From: Nymphaea colorata
Taxonomy: Eukaryota; Streptophyta; Magnoliopsida; Nymphaeales; Nymphaeaceae
Assembly (NCBI RefSeq): GCF_008831285.2
Contig: NC_045148.1
Span: forward strand, 8,685,001-8,749,000
Length of the DNA: 64,000 nucleotides
Direction of reading: 5' to 3'
Each line of letters begins with the position of its first letter. Position 1 is the first letter of the stretch. The notes below the pieces were generated by a model. It was not told the origin of the DNA, did no database searches, and saw only the letters and a list, made by a program, of their open reading frames with translations. Both the position numbers and the translations under genes were made by a program. This document shows positions 14,059-63,170 of the stretch, in pieces.

Positions 14059-17000
14059 CAATAGCGACGCTAAAAATTTTGGGCACAATTTGGGAAGAGG
14101 TGGTAGAATATGAGAAGGTCCATCAAACAGTCTCTCCCAAGGTTTATCAGAAGGCATAAATGGGACACTGTCCAACCTCGGCTTTTCACTGTCAACAGGT
14201 GGAAGCTTTCCATAGATAGACTCGTAACCATTTTCACCTTCAAAGGTAGCAACATTATTAGCCATGTTGATCATACTTGCACTTTTCTCATGCAATAGCA
14301 TGTTTTTATCATGCATTGTATGCATGTCCATGTTCTCAGCACTTGGCCAGGAGCAATCTCAAATATTAATAAAAAACTAATTTCTAAGTTTAAGCAACCA
14401 TGTGAACTAACAGTATGCTGCATTAACATCCTCAACATGCACTCTACATTAAGCTGGAATCAACTTGCTTTACTTCCTTTGCCATTTACTATTTGATTTG
14501 GAAATCCAATTTATGCACAAAAAAGGTAAAAAAAAAATAGTGGGAAAGATGATGTAATCAAATTATCACTTCCATCACAGAAGGAAAATATTGCCACAAA
14601 TTTAAAGCAATGCAAACATGGAAACAAAGCTGATAGAAAAACAGCACATGAATGAGTACCTTTTTCTTCTTGGACAGCAAACTGTTGTGCATGTTTAGCT
14701 GTGATCTGATCTTCCTTGCTGTAGGGGTTGAAAACTAGGTACTCATGGTCACCATTTATATATGTTAAAAGTGATGCACAATTAGTTTTGGAACTCTCCC
14801 CAGCAAATGTACGTGACACGACAAATGAAAGTCCACCTCCTCTTGCCTAGGTTATGTTAAAGAATAAAGATTTACTTGCTCAAATGAAACAAGTAACAAT
14901 GTTTTATCATACAATAAAGTTTGGCATATATAAGACGTTACCTTCCTGACAGACCACATAGAAATAGGAATTGGATCTTCTGTGTTGAACAGCAAAATCA
15001 GTCCATCCCAGCCACTTGAAGTTTCAACAGTTGCTGTATTTTGAGAAACACTAGGAACAAGGACCAAAGCTGCAAATTGTGAATTGTCTGCATTACATGC
15101 TACAGCTGCAAAGAAGCACACATTAACTGGTAATAGTGGTAATAGAACAAAGGCATCATCAAAAGGAAACAGCACCGTGACTGCCAAAAACAAAAATAAG
15201 CTTGGTCTTCTCATTATATGTAAACTCTCTCTCTCTCTAAAAAAAAAAATTCTTCCCAGACCATGTTAATAAATTACCTTCTATCACCAACTGATATGAC
15301 CAGGCCAATGAAAGTTTTTCCAGGTTCCACACCGACAGTTGGGGCTTTGAACCATGGCATATTGCCACAAGATTATGTGTCTTTGGTACAAAATGAAGTG
15401 CCACAGCTGGCTGAGCAACATACAGGAGAACTTTTTTATTAGTACACTTTATATTAGAAAAAAAAGTACATGAACTTACATAGAAAGATGTAAAACTTAC
15501 ATGTATGTGTGTGTGTGTGCATGTTGTGAGTATGACGGTCTGTCTGTCTATTCTCAGATGTTACCTTAAGAGTCTCACCAACTACAGCGATGAGGGTATT
15601 TGTGCCTGCATCCCACAATGTAATGCTAGTTTCTGCAGCAACTGCTAAGACAGACCCATCCTCAGAAAATCCAGCAGCAGTCATAGGTTTCTTTCTGAAT
15701 GGCCAGCCAGAAAGATAATGTACATGAGCAGCATACCAAACTAAAAGCCTTCTAAAAGAAAAAATTGCTATTCCCATGGTGCACAACCAACTTTTGAAGA
15801 TGTTTCTCAAGTGCAGTCATAGGAATACTATACAAACTTTTGGATGTTTTAGAATGAAACAAATCTACTATAAATATCTTCCATTGTTTAAGGGGCAATA
15901 GTTCCCATTTTAGATTTATAGTTTGCCAATGAGTTACAATGGTTTGATAACAGCTGATTGGTCAGTCGTGTCTGATCGCATCTAAAAAGCCACTCACAGG
16001 GACCTTGCATTCAAATTCTTGTCAAGATACCATGTTTCATGTTGCTAAGTCAGTGGATGCTGAGTAAGCCCCTAGCAGATATAGTATGCCAAAGTAATAA
16101 AAACAATAAAAATAAAAATAAAAGAAAGAAAGAAGACAGTACAATTAACACGAGATCAAGTAATTGTGATAATGAAACAGGATGTGCACTTCAAGAGACA
16201 TGTTTCTACAAATTACAAGATAGTAGAAGCAAACTGCTAATTCATTGAGGCAAAGGTGGGTGAATGATGCACAATAAGTGCTGAAGTGCTCAAAATTTAC
16301 TGCTAAGAGATAAGAATGAAATCCCAAAGCTTTTGAAACTCAATATGTGGCAACAGACTTGTTGACATGCTTTTCTGATAATAGTGTAAGACAAATGGCT
16401 TAATTTCAAAGATCAAGGCATCATCAAAGTGCAGTTCTGAATGAAGTTAGGAATTACGCCTTTTTCAGATTAAAGGAGGAACATACTTATACGAACCAAT
16501 GGACTGGCATTTCCACCCATATTTCTGAGAGGTTTTGTCACTATCAACCTGGCTGCTTCTGATCCAAACCTGAAAAACATAAAGTAATAACATGACTATG
16601 CAACCAAATAAATGACAATGGGGAAACCCAATACAAAGACATCCTACAAGTTCTGCCACCAGATGCCCCGCATAAGAAGGTACCTTGAAGTTACCACCAT
16701 AAGAAGTGCTTACTGCCATTGAACAAGAAGGATGAAATGCAAGGGCAGAAATTCCAGCATCACTGAACCCAAAAGACCCATAATGACAGTAAAGTCAATA
16801 ACAAAAAATGAACAAATGAAATTTGCATAGCAATAACTAAAGCGCTCCATCATGTAATCTACAAAGAGACACACAAATGAGCATGCTCAGGCCACCAACA
16901 GCTGGTTTTAAAACTACAGCACTATAATTTTTGGGCATGATCCTGCAAGATAATGCAAAGTAGTAATGAACAATATTTAATGTATTTTATGTTAAGGGAC

Positions 17001-19194
17001 AGCCACCTGATGCATACACCTGCTGAACCACAGCAAAACTTAAACAACGAGAAGAAACACAGAAACTGGAAACCTGAACGAAATTATGGCAGAAATTATC
17101 GTAAGATAGTTTAAAAAGTTAGACACTTGAAACGTTACAACAGTGACATGCATTATGTATGCACCCGTGTATCATTATGCTCCCTGGTGTGACACAGTCA
17201 CTTATGTAATCATGTTTCTCAAAAAAGCCACTGAATTGTTGCTTTAAAACAAAAAACAAAAAAAACTCTTTTTTCCCTTTCTTTAATGTACAACAAAAGA
17301 AAACATTATCAGCTGCCTACATTGACTATCTTGTTGCCCATAGCTAGTTGAAAGCCAATCAAGCATAAAAAAGACTGAACTTGGGACAGTTAAAAAATTG
17401 GTGATGAACCAACAACAAAAGAAAGGTGGAAACCTTTGCAATCAACAGATTCTTAGGCTTCACCAACATCACAGGATCCACAACTTAAAAAGACAATAGG
17501 AGCGAACTCCAATTGGCATGAAGGCAAAGTCCAAAGCAGCACCCACAAGCAAATGAACGGAAAAAGAAACATCAGATGGTATCATGGAAATAAACTTATA
17601 AAGGAAGACCATGAAAGTTGGAACACCAATTGAAATGAAGCTAACTATGAAGTATGAAGAAAGGATTGAATCTAAAAACAATGGCACCTAGTTCAAAAAC
17701 TTTATTTCTGGAAGGAAGAACAAACAATTTAAACCAACATTTTCACTTTTAGATGTATATTCAAGACCTACCCATGAGGTTCATAAATGACAGTTGATAA
17801 AGCATATTCTTCTTTTTGTGGTCTGTGCTCCCAAAATTTGAGGCAGACAAGGCCACCAATTTTCTCTTCTGGAAGCCTAACCTCCACTGTGCCCATTATC
17901 GAGGCATCTGATGAGACAGAAAGTAGAGGAAGAACTACCTGAAATCAACAAAAAACTTGTCTCAGCATAAGTCCTTTGGTGATTTCTCAATGTTGAAGTA
18001 AGAGGAAGAGAAAATATGCCACAGAGTAGAGCTATAGAAGGCAAGGCTGTGATGGCATGGTTAAAGATGAAAACACATTTACACATGGAGGGTTTGAAGC
18101 ACAACAAGGCTACACACTTTCATAGAAGATAAACAACTGCCTGATAATGAAATTGTCATAATATAGAATATTTTTTATTCTATCAATGTGATGTTTACGG
18201 ACAACCAAGGAATAACAAGCAGTGATTACTATATCCGTGCACAATCCTATGCAATTCATATTTAAAGCAGGGAATCAACACTGCTGTGCCCCATACAACA
18301 GAAGTGTAATGATAACATATTAATTTGACTATTCTGACATGTTCTACATATCAAGTGTCAAGTCCAAACAGGCGCAATTTGTTTCATTACCATGACATCA
18401 TCGCCAGGTTGATAATTCCTTTCGCAAACCTGAACCTGCAAGAATCATGAATGAAAACAATAACCTTGAAGATCTAAACAACAAATTGTCAAGATCTCAT
18501 GACAACATAGAAATATCATAACTTCAATTAGACAAACAGCATGCAAAACCTTTTCTCTTGTCAAATTGTTAATACAATTTCAATGATCATTTCCTGCACA
18601 AACCTCTGAAAGCTCACGATTGTGGAAGAGGTGATAGAATTGTACATGATAGCTTTCAGTTAGCAGAGCGAGAATGCCAGCAGCAGAACTCACAACAAAC
18701 TTGTTCCCCCACGGGCCCTTGTAGACCTCCGGAATCGGATAAGAAGGCTAGATACAGAATAAGGTAAAAGTTCAGAATCAGATGTAACTATACTGTTTAA
18801 CTAAAGGATTCATTTCTTAAAAGCCGTACATGGTCTCTTGTTTAAAAACCTATGTCACACGGGTGAGAGAATGTTAAAGAAAAGGTGCAGGGGGCGGGCC
18901 TACTCTGTGTGGGTGTGTTTGAGTGTGTGATTTAATATGTTACAATTTTTTTTTTGTTCAGAATTAAATTTTATTGAAGGCCATTTTAGTCCACTTATAT
19001 TTTATGATGAATAAAGTTTCATGTTTTTTTTTAAATATGGGCAGACCATGTCATCCTTTAAAAAGGACAACAGGCAGTCAGTGCAGTTGTTCTTTTTAAA
19101 GGATGACATGGTCTGCCCATATTTTAAAAAAACATGAAACTTTATTCATCATAAAATATAAGTCGACTAAAATGGCCTTCAATAAAATTTAGGA

Positions 19195-19245
<51 letters not shown>

Positions 19246-22200
19246 TGTGACTGCTGAAAAAGTCCTTTTGAAGGACGTGGAAGAGAGAGAGGAGGGAAAA
19301 ATTGGCTGGCAAAGTAAAAGGAAAAAGAAAAATAGAGGAAAAAAGAAAGCAGAAAAATAAGAGACAAAAAAGGGCAGGTGCAGACTCGTGACCACACTCA
19401 TGTGTGTATCAGATCCACACCTATGCCTGCACCCACACCAACATTGTGGCTTCCTTGTTGAAGAGTCTATCACAGTTAAAAACTGAGAAAAAGAAAAGGG
19501 CAAGAAAAGGTACCTTAATACCAGTGATGGGCTTTAAGGATTCCATTGAAGGCATTTTGAGAAGGTGGATTTGATTATCTGCACATGAGACCTGAGGGAA
19601 ACAAAGGAAAGTGGTTCAGGAACAATGCCTTTTGGGATGCTTCTGAATTAGCCAATTAGGAAAAGAGCACATCCACATGAACTGAATAATGGTTCAATAC
19701 ACATCATCATTAGAAAACCTGCATATAGCAAACAAAGAAAAGCATTATAGCGAAACAAAAAACTTCGAGTGGAGAAATCTGACAAACCTCAGCAATTTAC
19801 AAGCGGTTCAAATTTCCAGCTAACTACTTTTTCTTTCTTGACAATCAGACATTCTGCCTTTCTGGATATTGCGACTCAGCAAGCTAAGTTTGCAAGTCCC
19901 ATGAATCTTCAGAAATTCAGCTAGGCATCAACTTTTATTGGATCATATTGGATAAATGGACAACTCATATAAAAAATTCCCTTTCAGGTCATGATGCCAT
20001 ACTTTACCACATTTTATCTACACATGCAAAACTGTAACTTCTAATTTCATTAGATTATGGAATTCCAGAAATTTGTTTACCAAATTTCAGAATTTTCCAA
20101 TAGATCCCTTGTCAATCACTGGATCATAATTTGTGCAATTTTAATTCAATTCTAAAAATTCATTTCTTCAAACAATGTAGAAGTGTAAATTCTCTCTCAC
20201 TCTCTCTCTTCTCCCCAACCCCACCCCCCTTTTTGTCATTTACAAAGGACCATATTTATATATTGAGAAGACCATTGGAATATTTACCAGCATATGAATT
20301 TGGAGCCAAGAGATGAAAGAGCATTAGTTCTAAACTTCCAATTGAAATTGCTGGGAGATAAACTCCCAGCAAGAGCTTAGTTACTGGGTTCACAATATAT
20401 TCTTGAGCATGAGATCTTCCAAAAATGTGATATCATGCTCAAGTCCTGTAAGTCAGTAACCTGATCTGAAAAATCCGTTATGGAAAGCATAAGTTCCAGA
20501 TTGTTCCAATAGCAACCATGCACCTTGTCAAAGTTCAAAAAATAGCACATGGCAATGGAAGAAGACCTATGGGGTTTTTCTATGAGGAAATGGATAGGCA
20601 AAAGAACAAAATAGCTGCCAATTTGGACCATAATGATAAAAAACACAAAGTCAGATGGGCTGCAATTGACAGAAGCAATGTTTAGAATCTCACCAAGTCA
20701 ACTTGTTGACTCGGCTTGACTCGGCCGCCTACCAGGATGTCCAAGGAAGAGACTCGGCTTTATCTAAAACTTAGAAAGACTTGCCCAAAACCCGTTTGGC
20801 TTGCCTATAACTCATTTTACTTGCTTAGTCAATTTGTTTCATTTTCCCACCACCTGTTTAAGTTGCTCAAAATTTGGTCACAGATTTTATATTCACGTTC
20901 ATGCATGTTTCTGTTGAGTTGTTCTTCATTGATATATTGATGCTTGATACTAATAAATGTTGAAGTATGCAACTATAGAGTAGCTTAACTGTCCGATTTC
21001 TGGTTATTGCATAAGTAAATATAACTTAGGTGATGGCTTAACTTGATGTTTGACTTCCAAACTATAGAAGTAATCAACCCTTACACGAGTCAATAATGTA
21101 TGACTTATTAGGTTCCAAAACATTGGATAGAAGATGGAATGTACAACTTCATCAACCCTTGCATGCAGCAAATATCATTCGACCTAGCATTTTCATTATG
21201 ATGACAATTTCAACAACGATAAAGAGATTATAAATGGATTATATAATTGCGTAGACAAGCTGGTGGCAGATCTCCATGTTCAATTAACTATTCTTCGACA
21301 ATTGGATACGTGTACAGAAATGCAGGGGTTATTTGGTACTTTAGAGCAAGGACCATTGGAACAAGGGAAAAATCATAAGTTTATTAATATTAAGTCATTT
21401 ACAAATACTTTTTGAAACCTTGTTAATGCAATTTACATCAGACTTCTTATATTATTTTACATGGCTAGTAGCTGATTGGTGGAGGTCCTTTGGAAAAGAG
21501 ACTACTGAATTCATGCACTTAAAGTATGAACTTTAAAGTTTAAATCTAACATTCAGTGTGTTGAGTTGTGAATCTAATTGGAGCACTTTCAGGCATGTGT
21601 TTGTGTCATGTTACATTTCTAAGTGCTCATCATTTTAAATTAATAGATTGGAAGTTGACACTCAATTACCAAAGGTGCACACAAAAACGTAGAAATAGGT
21701 GACCATTTATGTCTTTATGTCACTGTGACTAGACCAGGCATTAGCCTCGTTGTTGGGAAACGTGTTGTGATAACAAGACTGCCATTTACATTGCAAATAA
21801 TCCAGTATTTCATGAGAGAACAAAGCACATAGAGGTGGATTGTCATCATCATCGGGATCTTATACAAGGAGGTGTTGTGTCTATGATCATGTAGCTTCTG
21901 ATGATCAGGCAGCAGATATGTTAATACGTGTTGTTCCTTCTCTCTCTCTCTCTCTCTCTCTCTCTTCCCCCATCGTACTCAACATTACCAGATTTGTAAG
22001 AAATAACATATGATATCACCATTTAAATGGGAAATAGTGTGGTAAAAGAATGAATTGTGGATGTGAACTAAGACAAAGCAATCATAAAATAAAAAACTTA
22101 CAGATGAAAGCCCAGCAACAGGGGATTCAACAAAATATAGAAGTTGGGATCCTATACGTGGGAGAAAATTCTTCTTCTCTGTATCTAATTGCCAACAAAC

Positions 22201-25200
22201 AAGAACTCCTTCCTTTCCACCTGTAAGATAAATTAGAAGATAAACAGAACGGCCAAAAGTGCAGCCTAGTACAGAAAAGCAAATGTGTAAATCATATAGG
22301 CCGTAATCAGAGGTTTCTCTACCTGAAAACAGATATGCTCCATCAGAGGAAAATGAAAGAATTTTCACTTCAGTTGGATGCCAATGCCATGTAGAACAAG
22401 AATCAGCATCATCATTGTCTCTCACACCAGGCTCCTCTTCCTCAACATTAGCCACCCTTTTATTACGATAACTTCCATTCTGAGAAAAGGTTCTCTTTCC
22501 AAACCCTCTCCATATCAAAATTCTTCCTGTGATATCACCACCAGCAACAATCCTTTCATTTGGATGAAATGCTAGAACTGTCAATTGTTTGGTATGGTGT
22601 AGCTTTATCTTCCTGACCTCACATGGACTGAAGTCTTTGGTCGGGAACTTCCATATGAGGAGTTTGTTCACACTGCATGTACCAAAGAAATCTCCAGAGC
22701 TGCTACCTACCAGAGGTTCAACTTCTGATGACTACAATATGAGAAGCAGGTGTCAAACAATTTGAGGGCCAGTATAACCACAGTTGTCATAAGAAGGGTA
22801 GTTTACCAGTGAAACAAAACACAGAGAATACACATGAACTGAGAGAACTAAACCTGCTTGTTTTCGCTTAACTTGTATTAGATGGATTCCCTTAGAGTTA
22901 GGTTGAGGGATATTTTCTTTCTTCAACATGCATTCGCTACAAAAGCTATCATTTCCAAACCAACTAGGCTTAGTATCAACCTTCATTGAGATGAAAAATG
23001 TGGCTGCATGCTTGAAAGAAGAAACATGCACTAACATTTGAAAGGAACAAACATCCTTAATAATAGTTTATTCTCCAAAACACAAAAAGGATTCTATGTA
23101 TTTCTGTAGCACATGCATCAAAGAATAACTGGTGGACAATTTGAATGCTGTAGAATCTTTTTATAACGTCCTGCATTTTCTCTCATGCACAAAACAAACA
23201 TACACATGTACATAAGACAGACATACACACACATGCACGCATGAGAGAGAGAGAGAGAGAGAGTATGCTAACCTCTGTTAAGATCCCTTCAATCACACGG
23301 GATTTTGTCAAGTTAACCACACGAACTTGACCCTTCCTTGCTTTCTGCTGCCCACTGCCATTACTAATGGGAGCAGCATGTTCAACAGAAATAAATGCAT
23401 ACAAACTTGAAAACTTATTGCCATTATCAGATAAAATTGATATCATAGGAACCACCTGCAAGAACAAGCAAAGTAGAAGACAAATTTCATAATCAGTTAT
23501 ATAGAAGACAAATTTCATAATCAGTTATAAGTTTGTAACTATGAGCATGATCCCTTGCAAAAGTGGGATCTTTAAAAAAAAATGTATAACAAACACATAT
23601 AAACCAGAATATCTCAGTAAAAGCAACCTTTAACAAATGAACTATATAAATGCAACAGGATCAGCATTTCAATTACAAACATCATAAGGTATTACCAACC
23701 AAGGCTCAGTTGGTGTATTACATCAATGTCTACCAGATCCAATGATGTGGGGATTTAGTATTCATTCTGATTTCTGCAGATTCTATCTAACACATCAGTA
23801 GCTTTCCAAGGCATGCATGGAAGATGGATAGATTTAAACTAAAGTAAACACCACATTTTAGTTTAATTGACAGCAACTTTGTCAAATTCATACTGCTGTC
23901 ACAAGTATGCCTTGTTTCCCCAAAAATCACATTAAAAACAGTAAAAATAAAAAGAACAAATTACAAAAAAAATACTTAACATTTGGGAAATAACAAATTA
24001 CAGTTCAACTTGTAAAAGATAACTAATAAGCATTCAACTTTTGAGAGAAATTCACAATGAGTTGTCTGCCAAAAGAAAAAATTATGTTCTCATATAATAA
24101 ACATCCCTCACATAAACAACCACCCTTCTGTTGGCTGAAGAAAATTTATTTCCAAGAGGGGCATTTTGCCACTTCATAAAAAAAAATAGTGTTTTCTTTT
24201 GGTAGCAAGCCTTTGAAATTTCTCTTAAACCCTCGAAGACCTACTTTTTAGAAGGATGTGGTGCTTTTTTGTAATTTGTACAAAAATATTTTGTAATTTT
24301 TTTGTGCTTTTTGCAATTTTTTTGAATAAGTAAAAACAAAAGCATGACATTTTGAACTACCACCAAAAGGAAATGTCGTGTTTTAATCCCAATATTTCTG
24401 TGAGTTTTTGTCAAAAAAGATATTTTAATATATTTGAATTTTTTTTTGTTTCTTTCAACATTTTAGTAACTATTTTGAATCGTTAACAGTGTTTTTGTAA
24501 GAAAATTAGTATAAAACACACAATTCCATAATTTTTCGATTGTGATATATTTATTTATTGTTTCTATCTCCTAATAGTTTCTCAACAAAAAACAAAGTTT
24601 CCAGTTAATACCTGACAACCCATTGATAAAAACACGGAGACTAGTATAGGAGACAATGGTTCATACATCTTTGTGCACCTAAGACACATGGGTATGAAGG
24701 AAATGTCCCTGTACTCATCTCAGGATGCCAGTATGGTGGGGCAGGTACAAGGACATATCCCCACTACAGCTTTTTCTGTTAAAACTTAAAAGAAAAAAAG
24801 AATGGATGGAAGGTTTTCAGAAAGGGAGGGAAAAGAGAGAGAAAGACTGAAATAATCAGAATACTTTCAACAAACCAAGGGGTCACGATCAAGGCAAACT
24901 ATTTGTTTACTCCATTGAGGGGTATTTTATTCTCTTGAAAATAAAATTGGGTTTCCATTTTTTCAACTTAGTCTCGATTGCATGAATTTGTTAAAATCAA
25001 TGGCATAAACAATTTATGAGGGTTTTGTAGCTACCAGTTATATATATGTGTACATGTGTATGTGTGTATACCAGCTATATATATATATATATATATATAT
25101 ATGTTCATGTGTATGTGTGTGTGTGTGTGTGGAAAACTGAACCTAAGCCTAGGCATCGGGCCTGGCCCGATTAAATTTAGAAACATATTTTTTAATATAA

Positions 25201-26534
25201 AATAATATATAAATATAATTAATTATAATAAATATTATAAATATATATAATTATAAATTACTAAAAATTAAAAAAATAAATTATCGGGCTTATCGGGCCC
25301 ACCCTAGCCGACCAGATAACGAATCATGCTAGCCTGGGCAATGTTGTAAAACGCGTATCGTAAGCCGTATCGATCGGGCTTTAAGATATGTCGTATCGTA
25401 ACGTATCGTAAATTTTAAAAAAATAATAATAATAAATCAGAAAAAAATTTTAAAAAATCAGAAAATTCATAAAAAAATCAGAAAAAATTAAAAATAATAA
25501 TTCTTCATAGAAAACATGTTTTAGTCTTTTAGAGAATGATAGACTTATTATTTTGCTAAATGCTATAAACTTGCGCGTTCACGCGAACGGTTCATCATTC
25601 ATACTTCATAGACATCAAAATTCATAACAATATTATTCTTTTTCATCTTCATCTTCATGGTTTAAAAAAAAAACCCTTTCCTCCCAATGGGAATCAGCCA
25701 CCCATGCACAAATCCATGGTTTAATAGATGATTTCACGGTGAAAATCGATGATTTCACAATAAAAATCGATGATTTCCCTCTAAGGCAGTACAATCTATA
25801 GATTAGAAATGCAGAAGGGGTGGGTTTTTATAAAAAAAAACTCGAAAAAATGGGGTTCAAACCCCCTTTTTAGAAATCAGCCCGTATCGTACGATACAGG
25901 CCGTATCACACGTATCGTACGATACAGGTACGATACACCCCCATTTACGATACAGGGGGTGTATCGTATCGTATTTTGTAAACGATACGATACGTATCGT
26001 ACGATACGTACAACACTGAGCCTGGGTACCTTTTTCCCTGCCCAGTACCGGGTACCCGGCTTGGCCCGGCCCGATGCCCAGCCTTAGCTGAACCATGATT
26101 CCAGCTATCCTATGACATTTGAAGACATCAAATCCAAGCCGTCCATCATCTTTTATGCATGGTGTGTAAATATGAATTTTTTTATTTTGTTTTTCTGTCG
26201 CATGATGGAGGAAGGGGGGGAAGGAGGACCCCCCCCCCCCCCTTCTTTTTTTTTCCTCCTCTCCCCTTTCCTCCACACACATAAGGTAGAGACAAGGGGT
26301 GATCTGCTGGCTCCACCCCTGCCGTCACAAGCGGGGCTGCCTCAACACCGCCTGGCAGTGGGGCTCATGTTGGAAAAAGAGGAGGATGGGGGAGAGAAAG
26401 AATGGGGAGGGAAGAGAGGCATGGGGAGAGAGAGAGAGAGAGGGAGAGGGGGGTTGATCTAAGTCATCTGATTCTAAATAGGATGGCCCAGATGTCTCTG
26501 AATGTCTAATTTAACTAAAATCAGCATTCAGGCA

Positions 26535-26611
<77 letters not shown>

Positions 26612-29562
26612 CTGGTAACTACCAGATTTGATCGGAACCGTATCCAATGTTGATCATGGAGACCTTGAAAACTCTAAACCTTTTTAATGTTCCCAAATTT
26701 AGCTGCATCTTCCATCTGTTTCTCAAGCAACTGACATGGGTACAATGTTTTTTCTTATTTAACGATTGTATTTTATAGGATTGCAGCATTGCCAATCCAG
26801 GAAATGGATTGAGAAAGACCATAAAAGAGCATATCTGTATTACATGGGTTTTCTTGTTTTAGACCAAAATTTTTGTGTAACACTGTAAGAAAATAGACAG
26901 AACTTCATAAAAGATTAGGACATCCTGTTAAAAGATTATCTCCTTTCTCCTTTGTTAAGAAACTTTGAAAAGAACTTTTTTTTTTTTTGGGTGAAGATTT
27001 TATCTTGAGAAAAATGGAAGCACTCCTATTTGGTTCAAGAAATTTTTTCTCCTTTCAACCCTTCGCATTGATACATTTGGATGCATGGAGACCAACACTA
27101 GTGGCATCAAAAGGAGGTGTTTTCTCTTATGTTATTTTTCATTGTTGACTTTACTTGATTCACATGGATATACTTCTAAAATTCAAAAAAAAAAAAAAAC
27201 TTTCATAGTTTTAAATTTTTTCACAAAATGCTCTAAAACCAATATAGTGCTAATGTCATTATGCTTAGAACTGGCTAAAGAGGAGGATATCTTATCAATG
27301 AATTTAGGAAACATTTAGAAAATAAAATAAAATAAAAACATACATTAAACAAATTGTCCAAAAACACCTCAATAAAATGGTTCTAAAAAACAATTTTGGG
27401 CTGAAGGTATCCTTATAGCTGTTTATCTAATCACACAATGCCTTCCCTTATTCCTTCAAAACCTTCCTATTAACAAATCTTTGGAAATTGATCTTGATTG
27501 TAATAAACAGAGTATTTGGTTGTAAATTTTTTTATCAAAATCATAAACTTTCTAGCCAATTTGGCTTTGCTGGAAATATATCTCAAAATTCAAATGAATA
27601 TTTTTTTCTTGATGCGCCTGTTATGGTTGATGATTATTATCATGATGTTGATTCTGACATTTTACTTTCTTTGATAATGCCACAAGCAAAAGTTTAGTAT
27701 GTCATATTTAGAATTTTTAACTTATTTCTTGATATTAAGGTAACCCACTCATCAAGAATATATCTCTTCTCTCAAACTAAATTAGCCTCTAGTGTTGATA
27801 CAGTTAAGTGGTGGATACTCCTTAAGCTCTTAACATGAAAATGAAGATTAGTGATGGAAGATTTTTTACAAATGCAAGTCCTCACAAACAACTTATTGGA
27901 GCTATCTCTTAGGTTCTTACCATCACTAGACCTGATATCTCACACTGTTCACATGGTTAGCCAATTTCAATATGCAGCAACTACAGTTCACATGGAACTC
28001 CTACGTATTGTCAAATAGGTTAAGAGTAGTCTCACCAAGGGACCCTTCTTGTCCTCATCATCTTTCGAGCTCACAGCTTATGCAAATGTTCACTAAGGAG
28101 GCGAGTCTGACAATCATCATTCTACAACTTTAATATTGTTTGGGAAATTTATTATATCGTCGAGGTGCAAAAAGCAACAAAAGATCATTCTTTCATCAAT
28201 TCAAATTGAATACTGGATGATGGCTACAGCTACTTATGAGCTACACTAGATAAAAGGTCTTTCTAAACATAGTCACAAATAACGTTTCGGTCCTTCGAAG
28301 TTTTAAACAGTGAGTTTTTCCTTAGGTATAATACGGCTAGCTTTAAAAAAGGGAAAAATACGATAAAAATACGACAAATTTTTAAAAATTTAAAAAAACT
28401 AAAAATGGGGAAAAAATAAAGTGAGAAATTAATAACACAAACATCAAAAAATAAGTAGATTTGCAACAAATAAAAAATACAAAATGAAAAAAAACTGTTT
28501 GGCTTTAAAAAACATGAAAAAAATGAAAAAAGTAACAAAAAAAACGTTTTTTTATATTTTTAAAAATGTTTTTTTTTTAGTTTTAAATGGCAATTTATTT
28601 GTCACTTTTTTCTTCACGTTTTTTGTGACGCTGCTTCTAAATGACAGAGGTGTCTATTTGAGTTCACAATTCAAGTTTTGCAGTGACAATAAGAGTGCTA
28701 GCTACATTGCTTATAACCATACATTTCACGAAATAATCAAACACATTGAAATAGATTCAATCCATTATGCTGGGGAAGAATTTTTAAAGAACGTTATTGA
28801 GTTGCCACTTGCCATTCATCACATCAAAGTATCAATTGATTGATTCCTTAACAAAAAACCCTTTGTACTCCTCATTTAGCTTCCTTCTTGAAAAGGTTTT
28901 CATTATCCAACAATAAATTTAAGGGGGTATATTAGTATACATATTTCTTTATTTCTCTCTTGTGTTTTTCTTTTTTTCTTTTTTTTTTTCTTTTTTATTT
29001 GTTTGGTCTAATCAAGCTTCATTAGATTTCAACTAGCCATTAAGCTAGTGCCAATGGCTTTAAATAGTACTGTTCTCTCCTTCTAATTTATAAATTGTAA
29101 ATAAGGGATATTGTCCCATTGGATTTTAAGATTCTTATGAAGCCTTTGTGTGTTAATACAATTATTGATTATTCAGTTATAAAGTTTTACTTTTCTTGAC
29201 ATTATTATCAAGTTACACTATGTAGGCTCCAAAGTTTACTCCTTGCCTAGGCTCCATTAGCACTTTTAGAAACATCTATGTTGTCAAGGCACCTGGGCAC
29301 TGCCTGGTGCCCAGGCAGAGCCTATGCCTATGCGAGCCTAGGAAAAAAAGGTGACCAATCTTTTTTTTTTCATTTTTTTTAGTTATGTTAATATGTCAAG
29401 TTATTTTAACTAACTATTACTAATATTTAAAAGGTGGAGTAGTAATATAAAAATCATAATAACTTAAACAATAAAAAATTAGTTGTTGACTTCATTGAAT
29501 ATGAAAAATCAATAGAAGAAGTTTAACATTACTCATTAAATGTAATCTAATACAAGTAACGG

Positions 29563-29602
<40 letters not shown>

Positions 29603-30351
29603 GAACCTAATCTCTAGAAGAAGGAATGTAAATCCGTAGGAAGGCTTTAATCCACCTGGACTTAAACAAAGACATAATATAATAAAAAAAAAACCACCAG
29701 TACATAATAGTATACATTTAAGTACATAACAGTAACAATACATATAAGTACATAACCATACTAATGTATAAATATAATAGGCATCACAATATTACATATT
29801 ATATAACTGATAACAGGCTAACAATATATACATATTAGGTTGATGCAATACTTTATAACAGATCGTACGTATAATATGTATTACAATATATATAACAGGA
29901 ATAACAAATTGTATTACAATACAATTTACATAATAGTATATACATATAAGTTTATAAGTTGTAACAGGTATACATGATATAAGTATGTAACATAACCATA
30001 CTAACATAATATAATAAAAAAAAGTTAACAGTACATAATATTGTACATATAAGTACACAACAGTAACAATACATATAAGTACATACCCATACTAACAAAT
30101 ACATATAACAGGTATCACAATACTACATAATACATATTATATAACAGGCTAACAATATATACATATAAAAGGTTGATGCAATACCATATAACAGGTATAA
30201 CGCACTGTACATGACAGTATATACATATAAGTTTATAACATGTATTACAATGAAGAACAAATTGTATTACAATGCATATAACCTATGTCACATGGGTGCG
30301 GGTGCTGGTGCGGCAAGGTCCAAAAAAAAACCTCGGTGCGGGTACGGTGAG

Positions 30352-30414
<63 letters not shown>

Positions 30415-33263
30415 AAAAATTAAATAAAAATTAATAAATACCCACTACAAATCAACAAGGATTAGATCATTAGAGTTTTAAGAAATGTTCCATCAACTGA
30501 TTCAACAATTAAAAAAATAAAATGAAATTCATCATTCTTGTATTAATCTCTTCATCACTCGTAATTTATTGAAGGCTGTTGCAGTGTCTCAAAAACAACA
30601 GACAAGCAACATAGGATGAGTCAAAATGCCATAAACTTCAGGGCAGCAGGTTCAAACCAGCAGCTAAATAGTAAGAATGTTTGTAATGAAGTCTACAAAC
30701 TAGTATCATTAAAGATAAAAGGTAGAAGAATAGTCTTCGCAAAGTATGTTTCTCAAACACAGAAAGAAAGTGCTCATTGTATATGTGCACTAAAAAGTAG
30801 AAACTCTATCGCTGTTAAACTCTGTGCGTTGGATTTTCTATGCCTTCGATTTTTTTTTTTGTGCACTAGAAACTTAGAAACTTATTCTTAAATGTTCTGT
30901 TCGTTTCTGATTTTTTTTTCGTTTCTGTTTAATCATCATTTTTTTAGTTCGATTCTGATTTCTGCATAAGGGGTTAATATCTTAATATGTATTATGTTCT
31001 CTTTATTTCTGATTTGAAGTTAATATGTTCTCTTTATTTCTGATTTGTAGGTAAGTAATACTTAATACTTAATACTAATAGTTAAAAATTAAGTTCTCCA
31101 ATCTGTTATTGTAGAATGTAGACAATCGGCTAAGGCCTGACTAACATGAATCAGATTTTTTATTTTGGTTCTAGAGTTCTCCAATCTGTTATATGTTATT
31201 GACTTATTGTAGGCAATTGGATGAGGGCTGATTTATAAGTTATTGTAGTTGTTTTTGTACAATTGTTACTTTGTTAGTTTGTTTTACTTTTACATTATCA
31301 TTTACGTATGATTTTTTTAAGGTAAAATAAGATTTAGATTTTGTGGCTTCAGGACCTCAAGTGTTTGATACTTGATAGCTGCAAAAAATGCCTAGATCGA
31401 AGGATTTATTTTGGTCCCATGCACTTCAAAGTCATGAAGAGAAGTTGATTTGCAAGTTTTCTTTTGAGCAATACACAGGAGGAATTACTCGATTTAAGCA
31501 TCATTTGGCTGGAATTCATGGCAATGTTGTTGTCTTATTAGTTTCTCATTTATTTTATTTTTTCTAACGTTTAGGAAATTTTAGTATTTTTTGTTTTTTA
31601 AAAATTACCATGTTTTTCCCCTTTTCCCCTGTATTTTTCAAGCTCGCCGTTATACATGACGTCGCCGTTTAAAACTCTGAAACATTACTTGTGACTATGG
31701 TGTATACATATAACAATATACATATAACAACATAATCAACATAACAATACATAAAAATATGTAATCAATATAAAATAAAGTACACAATAATATATACACA
31801 ATTAAGAAACTTTAACTGAAAGGGAAGGTGAATTTTCACTTTTCGTTAGACTAGGGGTGTTGGTGCCTAGTGAAGCCTAAGCGCCAACCTAGGCACCAAC
31901 ACATATCCCGTTGCCTAAATGGTGGACTTAGACGATGGGTGTGGACTCATGCTTAGTCCACGCCTAAGCGAGGCCTTAACAACATAGAGAAACATAGCTC
32001 TATATCAATATTGTAATTGTTTCATCTCACACCAGTTGATATGTTGCGTATCAATGGCAAAAATGAAGTGATAATTCTCAAGATCAGTGGTAGTCAAGCT
32101 CTATAATACATACTCGTAAATATAATATTTAATATATCCTTGTGCATCTATCTACTTTTGTATATACACATACATTTCTCACTATTCATAATTATATCCA
32201 ACGCCTTACTTTTTTTGGCATTTTAGATATTTTAATTTAAACCTCCATATTGATCTTGTTTTAGTCAATTGAGTTGGACATGTCAGACTGCCTAATCCAG
32301 ACTAGCTTTTGAGGGCCTTAACCAAACCTATGCTTGACTTCCCAGTTGACAGCTTAGCTTGAGTATGCATGAATGAGTTGGATGTAGAAGAACTAGAAAT
32401 CAAGAACAACTCAATATGGATGACTTGCTAGAATTAAAACAGAAACTATAATCAAGAGTTAGGAACACATGGGCAGAAACGGATCAGCTTTAGGCAGGAC
32501 TAGGTGGCAGACCCAAAAAAGCCTATGTGGAGCCAAAATGACAAAAACTATAAGGAGAAAAAGAAAGAAGGAAGAAGAAAAATAGGAGAAAGGAGAAAAG
32601 TGGCAGTTTTGAAATTCCACCTACCCAAGCAACATACTAAAAGACATAACAACAATGGAATAATATTTTTAGCATTAAAAGTTAGAAAAATGTTTGAGAC
32701 ATGCAAGTGCCTCAGCCTTGGCATTTAGCCAGCCAACCAGCACCTACGTGGACTTTTGACCACATAGATCACTCATCACCATTCGTATGGTAAACATGAC
32801 GCAGCAGAAGATGCTTATTTCATGGCGAAAAACAACAAAATAGAACAATATAGAGCAGCCATAGCATATACACCACTCTCACCATGAAATAGATAGGAAT
32901 GTTAACATCCACCGTCTTAATCAACTCTCCTGAAGCAAAGTTCCAATATCTCAGGGTACCATCCAATGACGACGTCCAGCAGTTGTATAGAAGCTTACCT
33001 GCAGCACCGGCTGCAGGTACAACAACAACAGAAGTGACAGGTGCTGTATGACCTTCCAATTCTGATATCTGCAAATTAAGAGTTCCAAATCACTATAAGA
33101 CACTTACTCCAAAACCAGAGGGTAGACTAAGTTTGAACATTACCAACAAACTTGTAGTTGTGCTGTAGATTGAAACGATATTGCCCGTACAAAGAAGCAA
33201 TTTCTTTCCATCACCAGAAAAAGCAGGACACCGAAATACTAAATTTTGTCCTCCAGTTAACAT
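14029..33263 (-). CDS. WDR75: WDR75/UTP17-like WD40 protein, 16 coding exons
   Basis: Nucleolar U3 snoRNP (UTP-A/t-UTP) subunit for pre-18S rRNA processing. Coding exons in gene order: 33263-33144, 33068-32883, 23455-23273, 22731-22323, 22220-22102, 19591-19514, 18747-18604, 18435-18391, 17938-17772, 16762-16684, 16569-16487, 15694-15565, 15410-15278, 15105-14942, 14846-14660, 14357-14029. All introns are GT-AG, the phases agree, and the sum is 2556 bp (851 aa), close to the family length. WD-type segments include [13 protein letters not shown] (exon 2), [14 protein letters not shown] and [20 protein letters not shown] (exon 4), [16 protein letters not shown] (exon 10) and [15 protein letters not shown] (exon 12); the C-terminal part has [19 protein letters not shown]. 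The start at 33263 follows an in-frame TAA. Intron 2 is 9427 bp of nested transposons, while intron 1 is only 75 bp. The family call is from remembered homologues; the exon model is inferred without transcripts. Confidence 0.9.
18965..19191. mobile_element. Foldback (near-perfect inverted repeat) in WDR75 intron 6
   Basis: The left arm (about 18965-19070) and right arm (about 19087-19191) are reverse complements over about 105 bp with only a few mismatches and a 2-bp length change in a T run. The loop is about 16-20 bp (CAGGCAGTCAGTGC). The ends read TAAATTTTATTGAAGG and CCTTCAATAAAATTTA. No transposase or clear TSD was found. It is either a foldback MITE or an inverted duplication. A GA microsatellite follows immediately at 19198. 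Confidence 0.9.
19198..19241. repeat. (GA)n microsatellite
   Basis: About 44 bp of uninterrupted GA inside WDR75 intron 6. The minus-strand SLSLSL ORFs over it are artefacts. Confidence 0.95.
21766..21930 (+). mobile_element. Ty1/copia RNase H fragment in WDR75 intron 5
   Basis: The frame reads [20 protein letters not shown] followed by [16 protein letters not shown], the conserved C-terminal part of copia RNase H. It lies opposite in strand to the host gene, within its 2510-bp intron 5 (19592-22101). No LTR was recognised. A TC microsatellite follows at about 21938-21965. Confidence 0.85.
23475..23530. repeat. 28-bp tandem duplication beside WDR75 exon 3
   Basis: AGAAGACAAATTTCATAATC plus TTATAT-like sequence occurs twice in tandem (start 23475 and 23503), about 20 bp from the exon 3 acceptor, in intron 2. 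Confidence 0.85.
25144..26086. mobile_element. hAT-like element, outer member of a nested pair
   Basis: The ends TAAGCCTAGGCATCGGGCC and (inverted) TAAGGCTGGGCATCGGGCC match at 17 of 19 positions. The flanking 8-mers actgaacc (25136-25143) and gctgaacc (26087-26094) differ at one base, as expected of an old TSD. The interior is AT-rich between GC-rich GGGCC ends. The same family occurs at 41264-41607 and 63763-63920. It is split by the 680-bp element at 25339-26018, so its own length was about 255 bp. Confidence 0.85.
25339..26018. mobile_element. hAT-like element inserted inside another hAT-like element
   Basis: Perfect 8-bp TSD agcctggg at 25331-25338 and 26019-26026. The ends are CAATGTTGTA and (inverted) CAGTGTTGTA. 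Subterminal regions carry many copies of CGTATCG/CGATACG on both sides, the pattern expected of hAT transposase-binding repeats. The TSD is built from the outer element's GCCTGGG sequence, proving it inserted later. No transposase is encoded. Confidence 0.9.
26100..27700. other. WDR75 intron 2, unassigned part
   Basis: Holds a G/C homopolymer cluster near 26213-26245, a GA tract near 26428-26450 and a long TA then GA microsatellite at about 26537-26611. A poly-A tract lies near 27187. ORFs of 67-116 codons look spurious. Confidence 0.6.
27700..28935 (+). mobile_element. Ty1/copia RT-RNase H fragment split by a MITE
   Basis: In shifting frames it reads [11 protein letters not shown], then [35 protein letters not shown] and [20 protein letters not shown] up to about 28259. 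The order resumes at about 28670 with [20 protein letters not shown] and [10 protein letters not shown]. This is the standard end of copia pol. The gap is exactly filled by the hAT MITE at 28268-28633. A purine-rich AAGGGGGTA at about 28921 could be the polypurine tract before a decayed LTR. It lies opposite in strand to WDR75. Confidence 0.85.
28268..28633. mobile_element. 366-bp hAT MITE inserted in a copia RNase H gene
   Basis: The ends CATAGTCACAAATAACG and (inverted) CAGCGTCACAAAAAACG form an imperfect terminal inverted repeat. The flanks tttctaaa (28260-28267) and cttctaaa (28634-28641) match at 7 of 8 positions. The interior is A/T-rich with AACG/CGTT words. Removing it rejoins the copia RNase H reading, which independently supports the boundaries. 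Related copies: 44367-44723 and the end at 31699. Confidence 0.9.
30286..30411 (+). mobile_element. Left end of a CCTATGTCAC-family element
   Basis: CCTATGTCACATGGGTGCGG is followed by GGTGCGGGTACGG-type repeats and a TA microsatellite of about 55 bp (30356-30411), the same arrangement as at 705-870. No matching right end with a TSD was found nearby. Confidence 0.65.
31388..31537 (+). pseudogene. hAT transposase BED zinc-finger remnant
   Basis: From an ATG the frame reads [13 protein letters not shown], then [20 protein letters not shown] and GIHGN. This matches the N-terminal BED zinc finger of plant hAT transposases (C-x2-C...GG-x-R-x-K-x-H-x-H-like spacing), except that the second cysteine is serine. 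No further transposase follows: the frame runs into the CATAGTCAC-family end. It may belong to the 29276-31987 element or to the nested one; the sequence does not decide. Confidence 0.7.
31545..31699 (-). mobile_element. End of a CATAGTCAC-family hAT element
   Basis: Read on the minus strand it starts CATAGTCACAAGTAATG and continues into a GTTTTAAAC word, as at 28268 and 44723. The other end and the TSD were not located. Confidence 0.55.
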
Positions 33264-36106: not shown

Positions 36107-38887
36107 AGGAGATCAACATCTGGCATAGAAATGACATTAAAAGTTGGAGCCTCAGAACAAGCTAAAACTGAATGAGACAAACTTCCATGCATGGAAATGT
36201 AGGATTATGTTGGTCTTGACTTTGGAAATGCTCGTTTACGTGATCAACCAGTCTTTCTCACTTTAGGAGACAAACCTATAGATGAGGAAAGTCTGAACAC
36301 ATCAAAAAGAATTGCAAGACAAAAAATCTCAAACAAGAAAGACAACAATGGTCAGGGCAACAACAAGAGGAGGAAGCCGCAAGGGGACTCCGATAGAGAA
36401 GTCATTTGTGTAGTGTCAGAATGTTTGTTTGCATATGGAGATCTGACTGGTTGGTGGATTGATTCAGGAGCTACTCGTCACATTGCAAAGGCAAAGGAAG
36501 ATGTGATTCGCATGAAAGAACTGAGTCTGGGAACACAAAAGGTCTACATGGGAAACAACTTATATTTGATGTTATGAGAATTGAGGCATATCGACTAAAT
36601 GTTGGGGGTATCGTGTCGTACTTAAAGAGGTTTTAATGTTCCTTCTATGAGGAGGAATCTAGTGTCTGTTGGCGCACTGATTGGGAAAGATTTTGAAGTT
36701 CGTTTTATTCATAGGAAGGTAATAGTGGGAAAACATGGAAAGACCATGTTCGATGGGAAATTTGTAAAAGAACATGGTATGTTCAAACTTAATGATATGA
36801 ATGAAGCTTCCAGTTTTGCTTATTTCGACTGTACAATGAATGTGAATGTAAACTTATGGCATGAAAGGTTAAGTCATACAAACATAAAAAAAGATGAAAA
36901 CTCTAGCACAACAAAATTTAATACTTGACATAAATATAAATGATTTCACGAAATGCGAGTCATGTGTATATGGAAGGATGACAAGAAAACCATTTCCGTC
37001 TAAAGTAATTCGAGCCACTGAACTATTGAAAATAATCCATACTGATATCTGTAGACATTTTAGAGTCCAAACTCATAACGGCAAGTTATACTTCATCACA
37101 TTTATTGACGACTTCTCAAGGTTTGGCTATATCTACTTGATTAGACACAAATCAGAAGCACTTGAGAAATTCAATGAATATAAATCTGAAGTCGAGAGAC
37201 AACTTGGGAGATGTATTAAAGTTGTAAGGTCTAATCGAAGAGAAGAATCTACTTCTAATGAATTCCTTGAATACTGTAAAGACCTTAGAATTAATATTAG
37301 TAGGCTAGAACACCACAACAGAATGATGTGGCTGAGATGTCTTGAACATGGTAGAGTCCATGTTGGCAAGAGCATAATTACCAAAAGTAATTTGGGGTGA
37401 ATGTATGTTAACAATTATGTATACAATAAATCGAGTGTCATGCAAAGCAGTCCCAACCACTCTTTATGAAAGATGGACTAGTGTAAAACCAATTATGAGA
37501 CATCTGAGGATATGGAGATCTGTAGCACACGTGAAAATTTTATATCAAAAAATAAATAAACTAGATAACAGATCAATCAGATGTGTATTTATTAAATATA
37601 TAAAAGGATCCAAAGGCTACATATTATATCATTCGACTATAGGACTTATAGAAAGCAAAGATGCATAGTTCTTAGAATAACTCAATAGTAAAGATATTGA
37701 TCGAGTTGAATATCAAAATGATACACTGGATGATCTGATTCATTCAGAGGAACAGTCATGTAATGAATAGACTGGAGGTTAGTTTAGTAATGAATCAACT
37801 GAGCATAAATCATTTGAGGAACAATCTTATAATGAACCGAGTAATGAACAGACTGGAGGTTAGTTTAGTAATGAACCAACTGAGCAGAAATCATTTAAGG
37901 AACAATCTTATAATGAACCGACTGAAGATCAGTTAGGTAATAAACCAATTGATATGAGTACCTTGTCATCTCAGATATTGTCAGGTCATAAAAGACCTAG
38001 AGCTCTTCCTTCATATTTGAATGATTATTATATATAATTGGTAGAGGAACTATGCTATTTAGCAGACATTGACGAAATGTCTGACAATCTGACATATAAC
38101 GAAGCCATAAGCTCGCATGAATCGTCGGATTGGATGAATGCTATGGATGAAGAAATTGAATCTATAGAAAAAAAATAGTCTAAAAATTAGTAGATCTTCC
38201 TAATGATAAAAGATTCATTGGATGCAAAGTGCTAAAAAAGAAGTATAAAGTTGACAGATCAGTTGAAAAATTCAAATCTAGACTGGTGGCGAAAGGTTTT
38301 TACCAAAAGGCAAGGAATTAATTACTTAGCTATTCGCCGGTTGCAAAGTTTGTATCAATTAGAATAATTTTAGCTATCGCAGCATTTTATGACTTGGATA
38401 TTTGTCAGATAGATGTGAAAATAGCTGAATAAATCATTGTATGGATTAAAGCAGTCGCCTAGGCAATGGTATTTTGTTTTTCACAAAGCAATTACAAAAC
38501 TTGGGTTCATTGCAAACCAAGTAGACCATTGTGTATATGTTTAGAAAAGTGAGAGCCTTTTCTATATCCTATCATTATATGTTGATGGCATTTTATTAAC
38601 AAGAAATGATAACGACATGTTATTCAAAACAAAGACTTGTTAAACAAGAACTTCAAAATGAAGGACTTGGGTGAAGCATCCTATATATTAGGAATAAAGA
38701 TCATTCGAGATAAAAACTCAAAAATCTTGAGTTTAAGAAAAGAACAATATATTGATTATATGTTGAAGAAATTTCATATGTTACACTGCAAAACCAATTG
38801 GGACTCTTATAGCTAAATGAGCAAATTTGAGCAGGAGTGATTGTTCAAGTGAAGGATAGCGAAAATTAAATGTTTCATATACACAAG

Positions 38888-41104: not shown

Positions 41105-41263
41105 GTTGATTTTCACCTGGCTCGAGTGGACCCAGACCCAGTTGCAACTCCCACATGCTCATGTCAAGTCCAGCATTTTACCTTTAATCCCGGGAAGAAT
41201 CCTTTCCGTCTCCATGAACTCTATACGTAATATGAGGTCATGAAACACGGCCTCGTTTGGACC

Positions 41264-41607
41264 TAGACCTAGGCAACGGGGCCGGGTACCCAGTACCTGG
41301 CCCGGTCGGGTCCAGGCTCGGGCTGAGAAAAGCCCGGGCCTGATGTGCGGTCCGGCTCGGCCCGTTTATAAATTTAAAAATAATTTTTAATTTTTTTAAA
41401 AATTTAATAATATGTATTTTATTAATAAAAATATATTTTATATTACTTTTAATTATTTTATAATTAAAAAATTATTTTTTATTACCAAACGGGCCGGGCC
41501 GCGGGCCGAGACCCGAGCTATCGGGGCGGGTTTCGGGCCCGACGAGCCGACCCAGGCCGGGTTTTATCGGGCCGGGCTGGCCCGGCCCGACCTATTGCCC
41601 AGGTCTA
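41264..41607. mobile_element. 344-bp hAT MITE with perfect 8-bp TSD
   Basis: The ends TAGACCTAGGCAACGGG and (inverted) TAGACCTGGGCAATAGG are flanked by tttggacc at 41256-41263 and 41608-41615. GC-rich GGGCCGGG arms surround an AT-rich centre. Same family as 25144-26086 and 63763-63920. Confidence 0.93.
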
Positions 41608-41615
41608 TTTGGACC

Positions 41616-44366: not shown

Positions 44367-44723
44367 CAAGCCTACAAAAAACACGTTATTTTTGAAAAAA
44401 AATGCAAAAAAACGTGAGAAAATGAAACTAAAAAGACACTTTTTTTTTTGAAAAAACGTGAAAAATGAAAAAACACGTTTTTAACGTTTTTTTCACTTTT
44501 TTCATTTTTTAAATGTCAAATAGTTTTTTTTCTTTTTTATTTGTTACCAATCTATTTATTTTTTGATGTTTGTGTTATTATTTTCTTATTTATTTTATTT
44601 TTTATTTTTAGTTTTTAATTTTTTTTTTTAAATATCATTTTTTCTGGTATTTTTCAAGTCTATCGTATTATACCCGAGAAAAGCCTCACAATTTAAAACT
44701 CCGAGACGTTATCTATGACTATG
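44367..44723. mobile_element. 357-bp hAT MITE of the CATAGTCAC family (probable)
   Basis: The right end (inverted) reads CATAGTCATAGATAACG, like the ends at 28268 and 31699. The left end CAAGCCTACAAAAAACACG is more diverged. The flanks agttgaag (44359-44366) and agttggag (44724-44731) match at 7 of 8. Length and the A/T-rich AACGT interior agree with the 366-bp copy at 28268. Confidence 0.7.
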
Positions 44724-45468
44724 AGTTGGAGTATAGTAGAGCGCGTTATTCGAAAGGAGACTTGTATTCTAAGAAGATGGGAGTTTCGACTTACCTGTTG
44801 GGTGATAGGATGAAATACTCTTCTTTCTGGCTTAACATTGAAAATGTTAAAGACCTTACTAAACTGAACAAACCCAAGTTAATGGAGGACAAGAGCTTGA
44901 TAAATAGAGGTGCATCTTCTGACATGGATCAGTTCAGTAAACAGAAAAAAGTAGCAATGTTGGTTTAGCAGAAAAGTAACAATATCCACATCCAAAAGCA
45001 ACATGCCTCGGATCTGAGCCTAAGACCGAATCCAATGCGCTTCCTCCAAACACCTTTAACCCATGTTTCCAGGATCAATTTAGCCTCTAAGCTTCCATAC
45101 TTAATTCCTCCTTTTCTCTTCTTTTCAACCATGGAGAGCAAAACCCGCATTCACCAGTCCCTTTTCAACAGAAACTTAAAAGGGAAACACCGTGATGTCA
45201 TCTGCAGCCGTTGGATCGAGAAAAGGGACGGTGGTCGGACCAGGTCCCCGGCCCTTGCACAGTTGCACCCACCTCTCCCGGAAACTTCCCATACCTCTCT
45301 TTTTACCAAAACGAGATCAGAAACTCCCCAGTTGGGCTGAGCACCCGTTGCACCCTTGCCTTGTAAAAACTGCCCCTCCCTCCCTTCACATCCCGGCAAC
45401 TTCCTCGAAACAGGAGCACTAGTCTTTCGATCCCCTGCTCTGACGGCGGCCTACCAGCTTTGCTTCTC

Positions 45469-45669: not shown

Positions 45670-46001
45670 ATGGCGAGGTTTGAGGACTTCTTGCCTCAAA
45701 TGGCGGAGAAGCTGGGGGGGAGGGCCTCATGGAGGAGCTCTGCAGCGGTTTCAGGCTGCTCATGGATCCGAGGAGGGAGCTGATCACCTGCGAGAGCCTG
45801 AAGAGGAACGCTGCGGCGCTGGGGCTGAAGGGGATAAGCGACGAGGAGGCGGTGGGGATGGTGAGGGAGGGAGACTTGGACGGCGATGGCGCGCTTAACC
45901 AGATGGAGTTCTGCGTCCTCATGGTCAGGCTGAGCCCCGAGTTGATGGAGCGGTCGTGGAGCTTGCTGGCTCAGGCTCTCATGGGCTGCGACCATGACTG
46001 A
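45670..46001 (+). CDS. KIC/PBP1-like EF-hand protein, frameshifted copy
   Basis: Plant single-EF-hand calcium sensors of this family bind the kinesin-like protein KCBP or the kinase PINOID. From ATG 45670 the frame reads MARFEDFLPQMAEKLGG and is then lost in a run of seven G (45714-45720). One more G would join it to the following frame, which runs MEELCSGFRLLMDP...DLDGDGALNQME...FCVLMVRLSPELMERSW to the stop at 45999-46001. The intact paralogue at 62938 has exactly the length that an eighth G would give here. The EF loop keeps D, D, D, N and E at the ligand positions. The ATG at 45729 could still give a 90-aa protein with the EF-hand. A sequencing error in the G run is as likely as a real mutation. 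Single exon. Confidence 0.85.
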
Positions 46002-58390: not shown

Positions 58391-58728
58391 TCTTTTTTTT
58401 TTTTTAATGATTCTCTTCATAATGCAGTCATCATTAGTCTTGCCACTGGAAAGGAAAGCCATGTTTCCAAAAGTAAACGAAATATGGGTTTGGTAATCCA
58501 GTGATGTTTGCTAGTTTTGTTGCCTATGGAGGCATTCCTCTCATTCGTTTGTAGTAAATTGTATTTCTTATCTTGTCTACAATCACGGGTTTAATAATTC
58601 TTGGACAAGACCTTTAACCACCTAGCCAAGGGGTTGAAGGCTGTCAATGCAGCTGTCATTCCCAGCCGCATTTCGGATGTTTCTTTATGTCTAAAATCAT
58701 GCATAAGATGAAAATATCCTATATTTTT

Positions 58729-59094
58729 GCATATCAACATATTCATTTGACATATTTTCTGCTCTTTTAGACTCTTATATCCTAAGTTTTTGCATATCAA
58801 CATATTCATTTGACATATTTTCTGCTCTTTTAGACTCTTATATCCTAAGTTTTTGCATATCAACATATTCATTTGACATATTTTCTGTTCTTTCAGACTC
58901 TTATATCCTAAATGTTTGCATATCAACATATTCATTTGACATATTTTCTGCTCTTTCAGACTCTTATATCCTAAATTTTTGCATATCAGTATATTCATTT
59001 GACATATTTTCTGCTCTTTTAGACTCTTGTATCCTAAATTTTTGCATATCAGCATATTCATTTGACATATTTTCTGCTCTTTTAGACTCTTATA
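58729..59094. repeat. 63-bp minisatellite, nearly 6 copies
   Basis: Units start with GCATATCA at 58729, 58792, 58855, 58918, 58981 and 59044; the last is partial. Copies differ at a few positions (for example CTCTTT-T/C-AGACTC). Because 63 is a multiple of three, one minus-strand frame stays open as repeats of a 21-residue unit (MNMLICKNLGYKSLKEQKIC). No gene context supports translation. Confidence 0.95.
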
Positions 59095-62938: not shown

Positions 62939-63170
62939 TTTGGGATTAAGACGCCTCTCGTTCTGAAGAGGGGAGATTCTTGTGGTTTCTGTTGGGAAGG
63001 AGAAGGCATCAACCCTGCTCGACTCTTATAGAGGAAGGAGGAAAGACAGAAACGAATCGATGGTAGAAGGAAACTGCATCCATTGGTGATGATTCCAAGG
63101 AAACTACACAGAGAAAGAGAGAAGAGGAAGAAGTCGGCAATTGACGACTTCCACAATTCTTAAACGCAAT

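What the first reader, a model, noticed from the sequence alone, without database searches (positions are those of the whole stretch)
23456..32882. Stack of nested, precisely delimited transposons in one WDR75 intron
Intron 2 (9427 bp) contains at least four hAT-like insertions with readable ends and 8-bp TSDs, plus a split copia fragment. Insertion order can be read: copia before the 28268 MITE, and the 25144 element before the 25339 element. The 29276 element hosts at least one later end. Meanwhile the exons on both sides remain intact with consistent phases, so a housekeeping gene tolerates the load. The intron boundaries and TSDs are seen directly; the tolerance is inferred.
Basis: partly seen in the sequence, partly recalled or inferred. 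Interest (0 to 1): 0.7.

Follow-up and report, generated by a model that had tools for sequence, protein, structure and literature searches.

The report
Nested transposons in a plant intron
A long intron of a plant gene thought to be needed for ribosome building is packed with old jumping-gene insertions, some sitting inside others, which is a common and well understood way for plant introns to grow.

Summary
The minus-strand gene encodes WDR75: exons 1-3 read open, join in phase and match the WDR75 propeller model. Intron 2 is GT-AG, 23456-32882, 9427 bp. In a blind TIR+TSD scan two of them (25144, 29276) beat all 12 simulated controls and the 28268 element ties the best control; it has a relative near 44.4-44.7 kb. 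The 25339 element is not among that scan's hits, but all 11 copies of its repeated 7-mer in 64 kb lie inside it. The 29276 element holds foreign sequence with an end of the 28268 family and a weak BED zinc-finger fragment; its left limit and TSD are unresolved. By my limits, partly set by eye, about two thirds of the intron is transposon. The nesting order is sound; the copia label is likely, not proved (Pfam gave no support). Tolerance of the load is untested: no RNA, no related genome, and the source assembly could not be searched. Ordinary; low interest.

The parts
33144..33263 (-). WDR75 exon 1 (coding part, 120 bp, begins ATG)
   Evidence: open frame and GT donor
32883..33068 (-). WDR75 exon 2 (186 bp, phase 0)
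   Evidence: exons 1-3 together match PF23869 WDR75 first propeller, 56 bits over cut-off 45, and human WDR75 7mq8_LH, E 1.7e-10
23273..23455 (-). WDR75 exon 3 (183 bp, phase 0)
23456..32882 (-). intron 2, 9427 bp, GT-AG
25144..26086 (.). E1, hAT-like element interrupted by E2; TSDs 25136-25143 and 26087-26094 (7/8)
   Evidence: (best score in the window)
25339..26018 (.). E2, 680-bp hAT-like MITE with CGTATCG-rich ends, inserted in E1; TSDs 25331-25338 and 26019-26026 (8/8)
   Evidence: not among the hits
26620..29250 (+). degenerate copia-like remnant (limits approximate, read by eye), split by E3
   Evidence: piece 28634-28840 resembles a second RNase H-like piece at 21763-21852, 60% of 30 aa, 1 match from 39 pieces; integrase- and RT-like reading of the left part is by eye and recalled; no retrotransposon family in Pfam for ten pieces
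28268..28633 (.). E3, 366-bp hAT-like MITE inside the copia-like remnant; TSDs 28260-28267 and 28634-28641 (7/8)
29276..31987 (.). E4, 2.7-kb hAT-like element carrying foreign sequence; TSDs 29268-29275 and 31988-31995 (8/8)
30283..31699 (+). E5, later insertion(s) inside E4: left end CTATGTCACATGGGTGCGGG (a family with several ends in the window), right end of the E3 family; whether one element or two is unresolved
31388..31552 (+). fragment of a BED zinc finger, as found near the start of many hAT transposases (recalled), within E5
   Evidence: PF02892 zf-BED E 0.0013, 19.2 bits, just under the curated cut-off 20.6

Best explanation
Intron 2 of a plant WDR75 gene has grown by successive ordinary transposon insertions. 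A retrotransposon remnant, probably of copia type, and hAT-type DNA elements landed there, and later hAT-type elements (E2, E3, E5) landed inside the earlier ones. Each hAT-type insertion was a cut-and-paste event that duplicated 8 bp of target. They are removed with the intron from the transcript, so the protein is unaffected. Shown: intron limits, element limits, TSDs of E1-E4, nesting order, open flanking exons. Inferred: that splicing works and that the load is neutral or nearly so.
For: E1 and E4 beat all 12 controls and E3 ties the best. 8-bp TSDs 8/8 (E2, E4) and 7/8 (E1, E3). A relative of E3 near 44.4-44.7 kb and E1-type ends at 41264-41607 (TSD 8/8) and 63763-63920 (TSD 7/8) show that these are repeat families. 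E2's 7-mer is confined to E2, 11 of 11. Exons 1-3 are open, in phase and match WDR75. [quoted passage not shown]
Against: E2's inverted end is only about 10 bp and it was not among the blind scan's hits. E1 with E2 taken out aligns weakly with the 41264 and 63763 elements: 60% and 56% of aligned columns, no better than with their reverse complements at 61% and 62%, so it does not show an unbroken E1 before E2. Copia: 1 of 39 pieces matched anything else in the window, and none from left of E3 did; no retrotransposon family in Pfam for ten pieces. E5 has no clear TSD.
Confidence: 0.93

Rival explanations
1. The stack is partly an assembly artefact: repeats were joined wrongly inside the intron, and the real intron is shorter or different.
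For: Long AT runs (26534-26588, 30358-30411) and a poly-A run at 29563-29600 are places where assemblies can fail.
Against: The TSDs pair on both sides of each of the four main elements, which a random misjoin would not be expected to produce, and there are no N in the window. No reads were available to test it.
Confidence: 0.04
2. Some sequence in the intron has been recruited for a function (an enhancer, a small RNA source or an alternative exon), so the stack is kept by selection rather than merely tolerated.
For: None found here, and no test for conservation was possible. The inverted repeat at 25883-26008 (about 71%) could fold in the transcript, but that is usual for MITEs (recalled).
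Against: The six stop-to-stop frames of 100 aa or more that lie wholly in the intron gave no Pfam match above a cut-off; the best was E 0.016 for an unrelated family. The only plausible domain is the truncated BED fragment. E3 and E5's right end have relatives elsewhere in the window.
Confidence: 0.03

Closest known systems
hAT-superfamily non-autonomous elements (MITEs) of plants
   Same: 8-bp TSDs and short inverted ends (beginning TA in E1, CA in E2 and E3, CT in E4), little or no coding sequence; the family traits are recalled, not looked up
   Different: nothing found beyond the sequence itself; no transposase catalytic region seen here
Ty1/copia LTR retrotransposon remnants in plant introns
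   Same: integrase-like to RNase H-like order by eye, with one RNase H-like match
   Different: 5' part not seen, many stops, split by a MITE; LTRs not demonstrated; no Pfam support
TE-expanded introns of plants with larger genomes (Chloranthus, grapevine, spruce)
   Same: long intron made largely of TEs in a gene with intact exons (PMC8626473 and PMC4108047, passages)
   Different: here DNA elements cover more than the retrotransposon remnant, by limits partly set by eye; no genome-wide comparison made

Membership tests
hAT superfamily (E1-E4) | 8-bp target-site duplication | tested here: met
   8/8 for E2 and E4, 7/8 for E1 and E3
hAT superfamily (E1-E4) | short terminal inverted repeats | tested here: met
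   for E1, E3, E4; E2 only about 10 bp, seen and not among the hits
hAT superfamily (E1-E4) | mobilised by a hAT transposase | not testable with these tools
   no autonomous partner seen; only a BED fragment in E5, E 0.0013 and under the curated cut-off
Ty1/copia (26620-29250) | pol domains in the order integrase, reverse transcriptase, RNase H | tested here: inconclusive
   one RNase H-like piece matched a second window locus, 1 of 39 pieces; order read by eye; no retrotransposon family in Pfam for ten pieces
Ty1/copia (26620-29250) | paired LTRs | not tested
   5' part not seen; a 3' LTR start near 28935 is a guess by eye
WDR75 (host gene) | WDR75 first beta-propeller | tested here: met
   PF23869 56 bits for exons 1-3 and 56.4 bits for 21985-22731, cut-off 45; best PDB match human WDR75 7mq8_LH
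WDR75 (host gene) | second beta-propeller downstream | tested here: inconclusive
   PF23769 23.1 bits at 15454-15816 and 13.9 bits at 17771-17944, both under cut-off 27; 1 of the 7 pieces gave a WDR75 match

The most novel reading that the evidence does not exclude
E5 is one internally deleted, transposase-bearing relative of the E3 MITE family (BED fragment plus an E3-type end), so this one intron would hold both a MITE and a remnant of its parental element, the latter inside a different hAT-like element.
Probability: 0.35. Interest if true: 0.15.

Novelty: new member of a known kind. Interest (0 to 1): 0.1.

Why it matters
It is a clean worked example of intron growth by nested insertion in a gene of ribosome assembly (the role of WDR75 is recalled), useful as an annotation check. 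It does not change how intron growth is understood.

Tried and rejected
Loose TIR+TSD scan: 14 hits in the window against 2 to 13 in six controls, so loose hits were not used as evidence; only stricter scores and family relatives were. Search for a TSD of E5: the only 8/8 pair among the limits tried (CATATAAC, implying a right end at 31706) lies in sequence that repeats this word and does not pair the inverted ends; with a right end at 31700 the best listed is 6/8, so E5 is left unresolved. Alignment of E1 without E2 to the elements at 41264-41607 and 63763-63920: identity no better than with their reverse complements, so no support for an unbroken E1; the right limit of E2 used there was one base short (26017 for 26018). 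Pfam on seven downstream minus-strand pieces: one weak WDR75 match, under its cut-off; the reading of the downstream exons is by eye only. Pfam on six long frames of the intron and ten pieces of the copia-like stretch: no transposon or retrotransposon family. Copy counts in the source genome: not obtained. Insertion ages: not attempted.

Full report
The window is AT-rich (37.7% GC, no N) and carries a minus-strand gene. Exons 1 to 3 (33263-33144, 33068-32883, 23455-23273; 120, 186 and 183 bp) have GT donors and AG acceptors at the two introns between them and join in phase 0 into 163 open codons. This product matches the Pfam model for the first propeller of WDR75 (PF23869, 56 bits, cut-off 45), and its best PDB match is human WDR75 (7mq8_LH, E 1.7e-10), with other WD40 proteins close behind. 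The piece 21985-22731 matches the same model (56.4 bits). Further downstream, open WDR75-like pieces can be read by eye to about 14.0 kb, but Pfam support there is weak: PF23769 at 23.1 bits for 15454-15816 and 13.9 bits for 17771-17944, the only WDR75 match among the 7 pieces; cut-off 27. The organism is inferred to be a plant from the gene and repeat types; no call names it.

The four element starts it named are exact. E1 is 25144-26086, E2 25339-26018 within it, E3 28268-28633, E4 29276-31987. Their 8-bp duplications match at 7, 8, 7 and 8 of 8 positions.

Is this more than chance? In a blind scan for paired inverted ends plus an 8-bp duplication over the whole window, 8 hits were found and the best four were E1 (16.5), E4 (12.5), 41264-41607 (10.5) and E3 (10.5); 12 order-2 Markov controls gave 0 to 7 hits each and a best score of 10.5, reached in one of them. 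E2 was not among the 8 hits. A looser scan gave 14 hits against 2-13 in six controls and is no evidence. Independent support: E3 has a relative at about 44461-44723 (74% over 297 columns) and shares an end with 31530-31699 (66% over 189). E2 holds all 11 CGTATCG words (either strand) of the window, against 0 to 3 per 64 kb in ten Markov controls. E1-type ends recur at 41264-41607 with TSD 8/8 and at 63763-63920 with TSD 7/8. That 8-bp duplications and such ends mark the hAT superfamily is recalled; no call classified the elements.

Order of insertion. E2 lies between two perfect copies of AGCCTGGG inside E1, so it came after E1. A comparison of E1 with E2 taken out against the two other elements was uninformative. 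E3 splits a degenerate copia-like stretch. Of 39 stop-to-stop pieces of that stretch searched apart against the rest of the window, one matched: the piece to the right of E3 resembles an RNase H-like piece at 21763-21852, 60% of 30 residues, E 8e-9. The left part reads as integrase-, reverse transcriptase- and RNase H-like by eye, but ten pieces scanned apart gave no retrotransposon family in Pfam. The copia label is thus likely but not proved. E4 has perfect duplications outside 30283-31699, where a different left end (30283) and an E3-family right end (31699) lie; repeats of E4 type occur on both sides of them (families D6, D11 and D14). A BED zinc-finger fragment sits at 31388-31552 (E 0.0013, under the curated cut-off). 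No clean duplication flanks this inner sequence, so one or two insertions remain possible.

By the limits used the elements cover 6318 of 9427 bp (67%); the copia-like limits in that sum are by eye. E1 and E4 alone, with their duplications and what lies inside them, cover 3687 bp (959 + 2728), 39% of the intron.

How it works: ordinary cut-and-paste and retrotransposon insertions into an intron, spliced out with it. The literature seen agrees that this is common. In Chloranthus long introns are prevalent, LTR elements appear to be their main contributor, and genes with long introns showed higher expression than those with short ones, declining above 40 kb (PMC8626473, passages). [quoted passage not shown] The listings were seen as listings only. 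Splicing and tolerance were not tested here.

Noticed in passing
window 41256-41615: A further hAT-like element, 41264-41607, with a perfect 8-bp TSD (TTTGGACC) and E1-type ends, outside the given region.
   Followed up: partly
window 63755-63928: A short GC-rich element, 63763-63920, with E1-type ends and a 7/8 TSD.
   Followed up: partly
window about 44370-44731: A relative of the 28268 MITE; its left limit and TSD are unclear.
   Followed up: partly
window about 705, 1848, 7650, 18848, 30283, 33766: Several ends resembling CTATGTCACATGGGTGCGGG (partly by eye), one of them about 0.5 kb upstream of the WDR75 start codon; the first two flank a stretch with the same 9 bp, GGAGCTAGG, on both sides.
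   Followed up: partly
window 21763-21852: A second copia-type RNase H-like piece, apparently within another WDR75 intron.
   Followed up: no
window 45684-46001 (+) and 62594-63025 (-): Two open frames with similar protein sequence in opposite orientation (EF-hand-like by eye), perhaps a local inverted gene duplication.
   Followed up: no
window 58714-59094: A 63-bp tandem repeat, 6 copies, 95% matches, lying in long open frames on both strands.
   Followed up: no
window 36203-37400: A better preserved retrotransposon pol region (rve integrase core E 4.7e-11 in 36888-37400; Pol_BBD E 2.3e-05, under its cut-off, in 36203-36577), about 3 kb upstream of the gene.
   Followed up: no
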